A DNA stretch of 38,320 nt, from positions 1 to 38,320 of the forward strand of contig JAGAMA010000011.1 of NCBI GenBank assembly GCA_017624955.1, written 5' to 3'. Made by a program: the position numbers and the translations under genes. The notes under the pieces are model-generated. The model did no database searches, was not told the DNA's origin, and worked only from the letters and a program-made list of their open reading frames with translations. Below are positions 14,335 to 16,908 of this stretch, piece after piece. This DNA is from Alistipes sp. GTDB lineage: Bacteria > Bacteroidota > Bacteroidia > Bacteroidales > Rikenellaceae. The number at the start of each line of letters is the position of its first letter. The first letter of the stretch is position 1.

Positions 14335-16908
14335 ATGATAACTGAAGAAGAAAAGAATGCCGGTTTGGTCGGGCGTATTGTCCCGGTCAATATCGAAGAG
14401 CAGATGAAATCGGCCTACATCGACTACTCGATGTCGGTCATCGTTTCGCGTGCCCTGCCCGATGTGCGTGACGGTCTGAAGCCTGTGCACCGCCGTATCC
14501 TATTCGATATGTCGGCCGAGCTGGGTCTGACGCACGATAAGCCGACCCGTAAGTCGGCCCGTATCGTGGGTGACGTGCTCGGTAAGTTCCACCCCCACGG
14601 CGACTTGTCGGTCTATGAGGCGATGGTGCGCCTGGCACAGGAGTGGGCGATGCGCTATCCTCTGGTGGAGGGTCAGGGTAACTTTGGTTCGATGGACGGC
14701 GACTCGGCTGCAGCTATGCGTTACACCGAGGCCCGTATGCGCAAGATCACCGATGAGGTGATGGCCGATATCGACAAGGAGACCATCGACTGGACGCTCA
14801 ACTTCGACGATACGATCCAGGAGCCGACGGTTTTGCCGACGAAGATTCCCCTGCTGATTGTAAACGGTGCGAGCGGTATCGCCGTAGGTATGGCGACGAA
14901 CATGGCTCCGCACAACCTCTCGGAGGTGGTGGATGCCTGCTGCGCCTATATCGACAACCCCGAAATCACGGGCGAGGAGATGTTGCAGTACATCAAGGCT
15001 CCCGACTTCCCGACGGGCGCCCAGATCTATGGCTACGAGGGCGTTAAGGAGGCGATGCTGACGGGTCGCGGCCGCGTAGTGATGCGTGCCAAGACCGAGA
15101 TCGAGACCACCCCTGCAGGGCGTGAGTGCATCGTTGTAACGGAGATCCCCTACATGGTCAATAAGGCGGAGATGATCAAGAAGATCGCCGACATGATCAA
15201 CGACAAGAAGCTGGAGGGTATCTCGTACATCAACGACGAGTCGGACCGTTCGGGTCTGCGCATCGTGATCATCGTTAAGCAGGATGCCCTGGCCAGCGTG
15301 GTGCTCAATAATCTCTACAAGAACACGCCGCTCCAGACCTCGTTTGCGGTGAATAACATCGCCCTGGTAAAGGGTCGTCCGCAGCTCTTGCCGATGCGAG
15401 ATTTGGTGATGCACTTCGTGAACCACCGCCACGATGTGGTGGTACGCCGCACGCGCTACGATAAGCGCAAGGCCGAGGAGAGACTCCACATCGTGCAGGG
15501 TCTGCTGGTGGCACAGGACAACATCGATGAGATTGTACACATCATCCGCTCCTCGCGTACGCCCGATGAGGCAAAGCAGCGCATGATGGAGCGTTTCGGC
15601 CTGGACGAGATTCAGGTGTCGGCCATTATCGAGATGCGCCTCCGCGCCCTGACGGGTCTGGAGCATGGCAAACTCATTGCCGAGCGTGACGAGCTCGTGG
15701 CCTTCATCCAGCGCATGGCCGATATCCTGGCAAGCGAGCAGTTGCAGCTGGAGGTGGTCAAGAACGAGCTCATGGAGATCAAGGAGAAGTATGGCGACGA
15801 GCGCCGCACGGAGATCGTCTATGCCGCCGAGGAGTTCAATCCCGAGGACTTCTACGCCAACGAGGATGTGGTGATCACCATCTCGCACATGGGTTACATC
15901 AAGCGCACGCCGCTGGCCGAGTACCGCGCACAGCACCGTGGCGGTATCGGAGTGAAGGGTAGCGCTACGCGCGATGCCGACTTTATCGAGCATATTTATG
16001 TGGCCAAGATGCACAATACGATGCTCTTCTTTACCGAGCAGGGTAGATGTTATTGGCTCAAGGTATACGAAATTCCCGAAGGAACGCGTTCTTCTAAAGG
16101 AAGAGCGATCCAAAACGTCATCCAGATTGCCCAAAATGATAAGGTTCGCGCCTATCTCAATGTGTGGAATCTGCAGGACGAGGAGTTCCAGAACAACTAC
16201 TACATCGTGATGTGCACGCGCCGTGGTACGATCAAGAAGACGAAGGTGAAGGAGTACTCCCGCCCGCGTCAGAACGGTATCAATGCCATCGTGGTACGCG
16301 AGGGTGACGAGCTGCTCGATGCACGCATCACGAGCGGCAATGCCGAGATCCTGATCGCAGCCCGTGAGGGTAAGGCCATCCGCTTCAACGAGCAGACCGT
16401 TCGCGCTATCGGCCGTGTAGGTGCAGGTGTTCGCGGTATCTCGATCGAGGATGACGATGAGGTAGTAGGTATGATCGCCGTCGAGCCCGACGACAAGAAG
16501 GATGTGCTGGTTGTAAGCGAAAACGGCTTCGGTAAGCGCACCGACCTGGACGAGTACCGCATCACGAACCGTGGCGGTAAGGGCGTGAAGACGATCAATG
16601 TGACGGAGAAGACCGGTAAGCTGGTGTCGATCCAGGCTGTGGGCGACGACAACGATCTGATGGTCATCAACCGCTCGGGTGTGGTAATCCGCACGGCTGT
16701 CGATCAGATTCGCCTCGCAGGTCGCGCTACGCAGGGTGTGAAGGTGATTAACCTGCGCGAGGGTGACTCGATCGCGTCGGTGGTTGTAGTGCCCAAGACC
16801 GAGGAGGATGAGCCGACCGAGGGCGTAGTGACGGAGGGCGTTGAGGGTGCGGAGAATGCAGCCGTTGAGGCTCCCGCTACCGAGACTCTTGCCGTGACCG
16901 AGGAGTAA
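14335..16908 (+). CDS. gyrA: DNA gyrase subunit A
   Basis: The 857-residue subunit cuts and rejoins DNA during negative supercoiling. It starts MITEEEKNAG; the longer frame from 14296 is rejected because that ATG lies at the -7 element. The catalytic tyrosine is Tyr130 in AAAMRYTEAR. The degenerate GyrA-box QHRGGIGVKG lies near residue 532 and distinguishes it from ParC. The quinolone-resistance region reads HPHGDLSVYEAM, with Leu91 (codon TTG at 14605-14607) at the place of E. coli Ser83. Codons at about 16045-16140 differ sharply from the rest of the gene (AGA, GGA, TCT, CAA, GAA). The C-terminal tail is acidic. An exported TPR gene follows after 51 bases. Confidence 0.95.
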   Translation: MITEEEKNAGLVGRIVPVNIEEQMKSAYIDYSMSVIVSRALPDVRDGLKPVHRRILFDMSAELGLTHDKPTRKSARIVGDVLGKFHPHGDLSVYEAMVRLAQEWAMRYPLVEGQGNFGSMDGDSAAAMRYTEARMRKITDEVMADIDKETIDWTLNFDDTIQEPTVLPTKIPLLIVNGASGIAVGMATNMAPHNLSEVVDACCAYIDNPEITGEEMLQYIKAPDFPTGAQIYGYEGVKEAMLTGRGRVVMRAKTEIETTPAGRECIVVTEIPYMVNKAEMIKKIADMINDKKLEGISYINDESDRSGLRIVIIVKQDALASVVLNNLYKNTPLQTSFAVNNIALVKGRPQLLPMRDLVMHFVNHRHDVVVRRTRYDKRKAEERLHIVQGLLVAQDNIDEIVHIIRSSRTPDEAKQRMMERFGLDEIQVSAIIEMRLRALTGLEHGKLIAERDELVAFIQRMADILASEQLQLEVVKNELMEIKEKYGDERRTEIVYAAEEFNPEDFYANEDVVITISHMGYIKRTPLAEYRAQHRGGIGVKGSATRDADFIEHIYVAKMHNTMLFFTEQGRCYWLKVYEIPEGTRSSKGRAIQNVIQIAQNDKVRAYLNVWNLQDEEFQNNYYIVMCTRRGTIKKTKVKEYSRPRQNGINAIVVREGDELLDARITSGNAEILIAAREGKAIRFNEQTVRAIGRVGAGVRGISIEDDDEVVGMIAVEPDDKKDVLVVSENGFGKRTDLDEYRITNRGGKGVKTINVTEKTGKLVSIQAVGDDNDLMVINRSGVVIRTAVDQIRLAGRATQGVKVINLREGDSIASVVVVPKTEEDEPTEGVVTEGVEGAENAAVEAPATETLAVTEE

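What the first reader, a model, noticed from the sequence alone, without database searches (positions are those of the whole stretch)
14605..14607. GyrA carries Leu at the classic quinolone-resistance position
The GyrA motif reads HPHGDLSVYEAM. In E. coli the same place reads HPHGDSAVYD, and in Bacteroides I recall HPHGDSSVYD, so Leu91 here corresponds to E. coli Ser83 and Bacteroides Ser82. Ser to Leu there is the best-known fluoroquinolone-resistance change. The codon is TTG, one C-to-T step from TCG, the commonly used serine codon in this gene, and the next codon is TCG. This looks like a recent selected mutation. The ParC counterpart has Ala at the Ser80 position, which I believe is normal in Bacteroidetes.
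Basis: partly seen in the sequence, partly recalled or inferred. Interest (0 to 1): 0.72.

Follow-up and report, generated by a model that had tools for sequence, protein, structure and literature searches.

The report
Quinolone-resistance mutation in gut Alistipes gyrase
A gut bacterium carries the best-known DNA-gyrase change behind fluoroquinolone resistance, and the same spot has changed again and again in its relatives, as expected if gut commensals keep meeting these drugs.

Summary
Window 14605-14607 is TTG, in frame: Leu91 of an intact 857-aa GyrA, aligned to residue 83 (Ser) of GyrA chain 6rks. The seven relatives closest by protein identity (89-97%) all have Ser TCG, so Leu is derived by one C-to-T step.

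Wider result: among 154 distinct gyrA genes of the genus and near kin, residue 91 is Ser in 117 and one of 11 other residues in 37, inside a nearly invariant motif. At least 32 Ser/non-Ser switches are needed, as many as random scatter gives (33.2 +/- 1.8); of 116 comparable GyrA sites it follows the tree least. Changes at three other quinolone-region positions (5 genes) occur only with Ser91. Among named RGIG ruminant MAGs, 5 of 7 from water deer are changed (Ile, Arg) against 3 of 34 from six other hosts.

Best reading: fluoroquinolone-target mutations acquired many times. Phenotype, drug history and dates are untested; natural gyrase poisons remain a rival. The mutation is of a known kind; its repeated appearance in one commensal genus is the interesting part.

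The parts
14605..14607 (+). TTG, Leu91 of GyrA (E. coli Ser83 / Bacteroides Ser82 position), the derived codon
14335..16908 (+). gyrA, DNA gyrase subunit A, 857 aa, intact
14581..14625 (+). [quoted passage not shown] residues 83-90, 94, 96 and 97 invariant in 154 of 154 genes
14617..14619 (+). GAG, Glu95, place of E. coli Asp87; ordinary here (Glu 79, Asp 73, Tyr 2 of 154)
6223..9036 (+). topoisomerase IV subunit A homologue (ParC) with Ala at the matching position, as in 29 of 30 genus loci read
4336..6216 (+). GyrB/ParE-family subunit B homologue directly upstream of parC, taken to be ParE

Best explanation
Leu91 is an acquired target-site mutation. One C-to-T change turned Ser (TCG) into Leu (TTG) at the GyrA residue that, with the acidic residue four places on, holds the water-Mg2+ bridge to the keto-acid of quinolones (bridge recalled). 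A bulky aliphatic residue cannot hold it, so the drug traps the gyrase-DNA cleavage complex less well while the enzyme keeps working. In this genus, changes at this codon have arisen and spread many times, most likely because gut populations met fluoroquinolones through their hosts. Shown: the codon, its derived state, at least 32 switches with no detectable phylogenetic signal, and the range of residues. Inferred: reduced susceptibility, drug exposure, and that this event falls in the drug era.
For: Seven closest relatives are Ser TCG. Of 154 distinct genes, 37 are non-Ser with 11 residues (L14 I6 T5 G2 R2 N2 A2 M1 V1 F1 Y1), while residues 83-90, 94, 96 and 97 never vary. At least 32 Ser/non-Ser changes against 33.2 +/- 1.8 with shuffled labels (355 of 1000 shuffles at or below); rank 1 of 116 comparable sites (0.86 changes per minor row, median 0.31). 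FastTree gives 33 against 33.0, a tree of codon positions 1+2 gives 32. 31 of 35 amino-acid changes fall on end branches, the highest share of 112 sites with 20 or more changes (median 0.58, next 0.76). Other QRDR changes (Pro92 x2, Tyr95 x2, His114 x1) are all in Ser91 genes. Water deer 5 of 7 non-Ser against 3 of 34 in the other RGIG ruminants, Fisher p 0.0014, 0.003 after allowing for seven hosts; the five are Ile and Arg, the two residues reported at GyrA 83 in Riemerella, mostly from ducks in China (Ile 125, Arg 26 of 162 strains), where a built Ser83Ile strain had 8-16-fold higher fluoroquinolone MICs (PMC6892153, passages). Ser82Phe in a Bacteroides isolate is called known to confer resistance (PMC4285247, passage). 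A P. gingivalis isolate with Ser83Phe had a moxifloxacin MIC of 4 mg/L, as told in a review (PMC8698109, passage).
Against: No MIC, drug history or reads. End branches span species-level divergence (window to nearest relative 9.1% of gyrA bases), so 'young' is relative. Two Leu pairs are sisters (L041/L043, L139/L144), so some Leu may be older. 16 of 37 non-Ser codons lie 2-3 steps from the codon of the nearest Ser gene. Thr is common at this place in the wider order (62 of 145 listed GyrA-type sites), so the 5 Thr rows may not be resistance. Some Riemerella strains with Ser83Arg were sensitive, and nalidixic acid MICs did not change. In Ornithobacterium, Ser82Phe/Tyr had no notable association with nalidixic acid resistance (PMC12366310, passages). 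Tetracycline-protection genes passed the cut-off in 5 of 180 genus genomes and not in G000, so they give no independent sign of drug exposure. The water-deer contrast is post hoc and rests on samples of 5 animals.
Confidence: 0.8

Rival explanations
1. Natural gyrase poisons or toxins from gut neighbours, not synthetic drugs, select changes at residue 91; alleles rise and fall quickly, so the site looks young on any tree.
For: The missing phylogenetic signal shows fast turnover, not which agent drives it. Changed genes occur in several hosts, including roe deer (1 of 5) and sheep (1 of 4). Two sister pairs share Leu.
Against: The concentration in one host (water deer 5 of 7, yak 0 of 11) and the fit to the reported fluoroquinolone residues suit drug exposure better. 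In the wider order, residues of the set L, I, R, N, M, V, F, Y are rarer (6 of 144 listed GyrA-type sites without G000, against 28 of 154 here), though that list was cut and habitats are unknown.
Confidence: 0.13
2. Residue 91 is simply tolerant, and the variation is neutral drift or tuning of supercoiling, without any drug.
For: Thr is common here in other Bacteroidales families; a position-83 mutant of Riemerella grew like its parent (PMC6892153, passage).
Against: Neutral variation should follow the tree; other sites with similar variation do (median 0.31 changes per minor row), this one does not (0.86, rank 1 of 116). Most neighbouring residues are invariant.
Confidence: 0.05
3. Assembly or binning error, or import of a foreign gyrA segment.
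For: The genome is a 42-contig assembly; a consensus hides strain mixtures. Local comparison has little power: over codons 76-106 the window differs from Leu relatives L036 and L107 at 10 and 8 of 93 bases, and from Ser relatives L037 and L035 at 9 and 12.
Against: The frame is intact. Over the same codons the window is closest to its nearest Ser relatives (L005 4, L032 5, L033 6, L034 6, L007 7 of 93), and over the whole gene too (9.1-12.0% against 15.8 and 17.9% for the two Leu relatives). TTG recurs in independent assemblies.
Confidence: 0.02

Closest known systems
GyrA Ser83/Ser82 quinolone-resistance mutations (E. coli Ser83, recalled; Bacteroides S82F, Riemerella S83I/S83R, P. gingivalis S83F)
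   Same: Same residue in the same motif, Ser replaced by a bulky residue; here by a one-base change.
   Different: Genome of a gut commensal without any MIC; at least 32 switches and 11 residues over one genus and near kin.
gyrA changes in human gut commensals after short ciprofloxacin use (Yaffe et al. 2025, Nature; not held; known by recall and by its citation in PMC13226659)
   Same: Chromosomal gyrA changes in many commensal species under fluoroquinolone exposure (recalled).
   Different: That work follows dosed people (recalled); here it is inferred from one genome per species, many from ruminants, with exposure unknown.

Membership tests
DNA gyrase subunit A | Full-length match over the curated cut-off of the gyrA model | tested here: met
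   TIGR01063 1136.3 bits, cut-off 877; NF004043 1174 bits, cut-off 902
GyrA Ser83-type quinolone-resistance allele | Residue aligned with GyrA residue 83 is replaced | tested here: met
   query 91 (L) aligns with chain residue 83 (S) of 6rks
GyrA Ser83-type quinolone-resistance allele | Replacement is derived within the lineage | tested here: met
   seven closest relatives Ser TCG; parsimony puts S to L on the window's end branch
GyrA Ser83-type quinolone-resistance allele | Raised fluoroquinolone MIC or drug IC50 | not testable with these tools
   no isolate or enzyme data
GyrA Ser83-type quinolone-resistance allele | Selected under drug exposure | tested here: inconclusive
   recurrence and host clustering fit; no dosing record in the passages and one section read of PMC8199421; supplements not seen
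Multi-step fluoroquinolone resistance | Second hits at the GyrA Asp87 place, ParC or GyrB | tested here: not met
   Glu95, ParC Ala as in 29 of 30 genus loci, GyrB motifs unchanged; ParE not checked

The most novel reading that the evidence does not exclude
GyrA residue 91 in Alistipes is a fast-switching site: resistance-type alleles have risen and been lost over and over in each species, driven first by natural gyrase poisons in the gut and now by drugs, so that single genomes of a commensal genus record the gyrase-poison exposure of their host.
Probability: 0.15. Interest if true: 0.65.

Novelty: new member of a known kind. Interest (0 to 1): 0.4.

Why it matters
If right, about 18-24% of the distinct genes examined in a common, non-target gut genus (28 of 154 without Thr, Ala and Gly; 37 of 154 with them) carry fluoroquinolone-target changes, mostly gained separately. 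Commensal gyrA would then be a readable record of drug exposure in people, livestock and wildlife, and public genome catalogues would already hold the data.

Tried and rejected
Tetracycline-protection genes as an independent sign of drug exposure: over the cut-off in 5 of 180 genus genomes and not in the window's genome; too few to use. A DNA pattern for the ParC motif matched only 9 of 180 genomes (all 9 Ala), because 20 of the 30 ParC loci later read have SIKD, which it cannot match; replaced by a protein search and 30 loci. Foreign import of the gyrA segment: judged unlikely, though the local comparison has little power. Paper searches with 'Ser82Leu' and with 'Ser-82' (plus Bacteroides terms and gyrA) gave 0 papers each. 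Two primary papers (PMC90588; Yaffe 2025) are not held. The search 'Alistipes, gyrA, fluoroquinolone' found 21 papers, 19 listed; I saw titles and starts of abstracts and opened one (PMC9975432) for passages; none of the listed titles concerns GyrA variation across Alistipes, which does not prove that none exists. The ParE motif search printed nothing, so ParE was not checked at its quinolone position. Reading other gut genera in the same way was not tried.

On the order survey: 5 of the 150 listed sites read Ala-Ser-Ile and may be ParC, so counts are given on the 145 with Val. Dropped before counting: genes within 2 bases of another (76 of 230 rows); 28 of the 178 matching genus genomes, because the listing was cut and I read only listed ones; 39 of 80 named loci in the host contrast, because only RGIG titles name the ruminant (SIG 0 of 10, SUG 1 of 2, others 10 of 27 non-Ser).

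Full report
What is there. The window is contig C40 of a 2.1-Mb, 42-contig genome, 93.5% complete. Its gyrA runs 14335-16908 on the + strand and gives an intact 857-aa GyrA. Codon 91, at 14605-14607, is TTG. In a HMMER alignment with the solved GyrA chain 6rks, query Leu91 falls on chain residue 83, a Ser in HPHGDSAVYD (the species of 6rks is recalled as E. coli). TCG is the commonest Ser codon in the gene (22 of 32), TTG a minor Leu codon (7 of 55).

Is Leu derived? The two sources overlap. Merging genes that differ at no more than 2 bases left 154 distinct genes out of 230 rows; a few, such as two Tidjanibacter, lie outside Alistipes by name. The seven relatives closest in protein sequence, at 89-97% identity, all have Ser TCG. 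Over the whole gene the window differs from its five nearest Ser relatives at 9.1-12.0% of bases and from the Leu-bearing L036 and L107 at 15.8 and 17.9%. Over codons 76-106 the five differ at 4-7 of 93 bases and the two Leu relatives at 10 and 8; two further Ser relatives, L037 and L035, differ at 9 and 12, so this short stretch alone decides little. A point change TCG to TTG on the window's own branch is the simplest account, and parsimony places it there.

The wider pattern. Residue 91 is Ser in 117 of 154 genes, and Leu 14, Ile 6, Thr 5, Gly 2, Arg 2, Asn 2, Ala 2, Met 1, Val 1, Phe 1, Tyr 1 in the rest. Residues 83-90, 94, 96 and 97 do not vary. On a DNA tree built without codon 91, at least 32 Ser/non-Ser changes are needed for 37 non-Ser rows. 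Dealing the labels at random gives 33.2 +/- 1.8, and 355 of 1000 shuffles are at or below 32; the stricter set L, I, R, N, M, V, F, Y (28 rows) needs 26 against a mean of 26.0. Of 116 GyrA sites with a comparable number of minor rows (25-50), site 91 follows the tree least, 0.86 changes per minor row against a median of 0.31. FastTree gives 33 (164 of 300 shuffles at or below) and a tree from codon positions 1 and 2 gives 32. Of 35 inferred amino-acid changes, 31 fall on end branches, the highest share among 112 sites with at least 20 changes. So these alleles are young compared with the splits between species. They cannot be dated in years this way. Two sister pairs share Leu (L041/L043, L139/L144), and 16 of 37 non-Ser codons are two or three steps from the codon of the nearest Ser gene, so some histories may be longer.

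Is it the drug? The range of residues fits. Two genes have Pro at 92, two have Tyr at 95 (place of E. coli Asp87) and one has His at 114 (place of E. coli Gln106); all five have Ser91. That these are known quinolone positions in E. coli is recalled. Five of five could arise by chance with 117 of 154 Ser, so this is only consistent. Among 41 named RGIG ruminant MAGs, 5 of 7 from water deer are non-Ser (3 Ile, 2 Arg) against 3 of 34 from goat, sheep, cattle, buffalo, yak and roe deer (Fisher p 0.0014; 0.003 after allowing for seven hosts by permutation). The other 39 named loci were not used, since their titles do not name a ruminant host in the same way; 11 of those 39 are non-Ser. The five water-deer changes are separate on the tree. 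The host was picked after seeing the data, five water deer were sampled (PMC8199421, section 15), and I found no drug record in the passages and one section that I read. In Riemerella, mostly from ducks in China and also of the Bacteroidota (rank recalled), Ser83Ile (125 of 162) and Ser83Arg (26 of 162) were the two types found, a built Ser83Ile strain had 8-16-fold higher fluoroquinolone MICs, but some Ser83Arg strains were sensitive (PMC6892153, passages).

The wider order. A motif pattern matched 206 of 393 genomes of the order; 150 sites are listed. Of these, 145 have the GyrA-type Ser-Val-Tyr: S 75, T 62, L 3 (one is this window), M 2, V 1, A 1, I 1; five more read Ala-Ser-Ile and may be ParC. 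Thr is therefore a normal residue here, and the five Thr rows in the genus should not be counted as resistance. Residues of the stricter set are rarer there than in this genus (6 of 144 without the window, against 28 of 154; Fisher p 0.0002, not corrected for kinship). Three of the six (M, M, V) come from one family. Habitats are unknown.

Against. Ser at this place does not prove susceptibility: two B. fragilis strains with Asp81-Ser82 intact had high MICs, put down to efflux (PMC8001070, passage). In Ornithobacterium, Ser82Phe/Tyr showed no notable association with nalidixic acid resistance (PMC12366310, passages). Tetracycline-protection genes give no sign of exposure (5 of 180 genomes, not this one). 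No second-step change is seen: Glu95 is ordinary, ParC has Ala as in 29 of 30 genus loci (one gave no match), and GyrB keeps EGDSAGG and PLRGK; ParE was not checked. A single GyrA change usually gives only a modest rise (recalled).

Setting. In one patient, two of three Alistipes species fell during oral ciprofloxacin and were replaced by A. shahii (PMC9975432, passages), so the drug appears to act on this genus in the gut. A 2026 review says that target mutations in gyrA or parC are pervasive in bacteria of the human gut, citing Yaffe et al. 2025 (PMC13226659, passages; the Yaffe paper itself is not held). The mechanism and its occurrence in commensals are therefore known. What this study adds is the measured recurrence in one commensal genus and the water-deer cluster.

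Verdict. The mutation is a new member of a known kind.

Noticed in passing
L056, L057, L076, L077, L106 (residue 91 of gyrA): Five of seven water-deer Alistipes/Rikenellaceae MAGs carry Ile or Arg at this GyrA position, each a separate change on the tree; yak MAGs 0 of 11.
   Followed up: partly
L061 and L221 (residue 95), L070 and L130 (residue 92), L069 (residue 114): Other quinolone-region changes (Tyr95, Pro92, His114), all in genes with Ser91.
   Followed up: partly
window 4336-9036 and 14335-16908: parE-like, parC and gyrA lie within 13 kb of each other, with shikimate kinase, glutamate racemase, FtsK-like and LolA-like genes between; gyrB is on contig C8.
   Followed up: no
L014, L116, L135, L208 (G137, G142, G128, G126): The whole-genome search reports one TAA inside the gyrA match in these four genomes; not examined, it may lie at the alignment's end.
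   Followed up: no
window 24739-27732: 997-aa protein with repeated stretches matching the tol-pal YbgF model and other TPR-type models.
   Followed up: no
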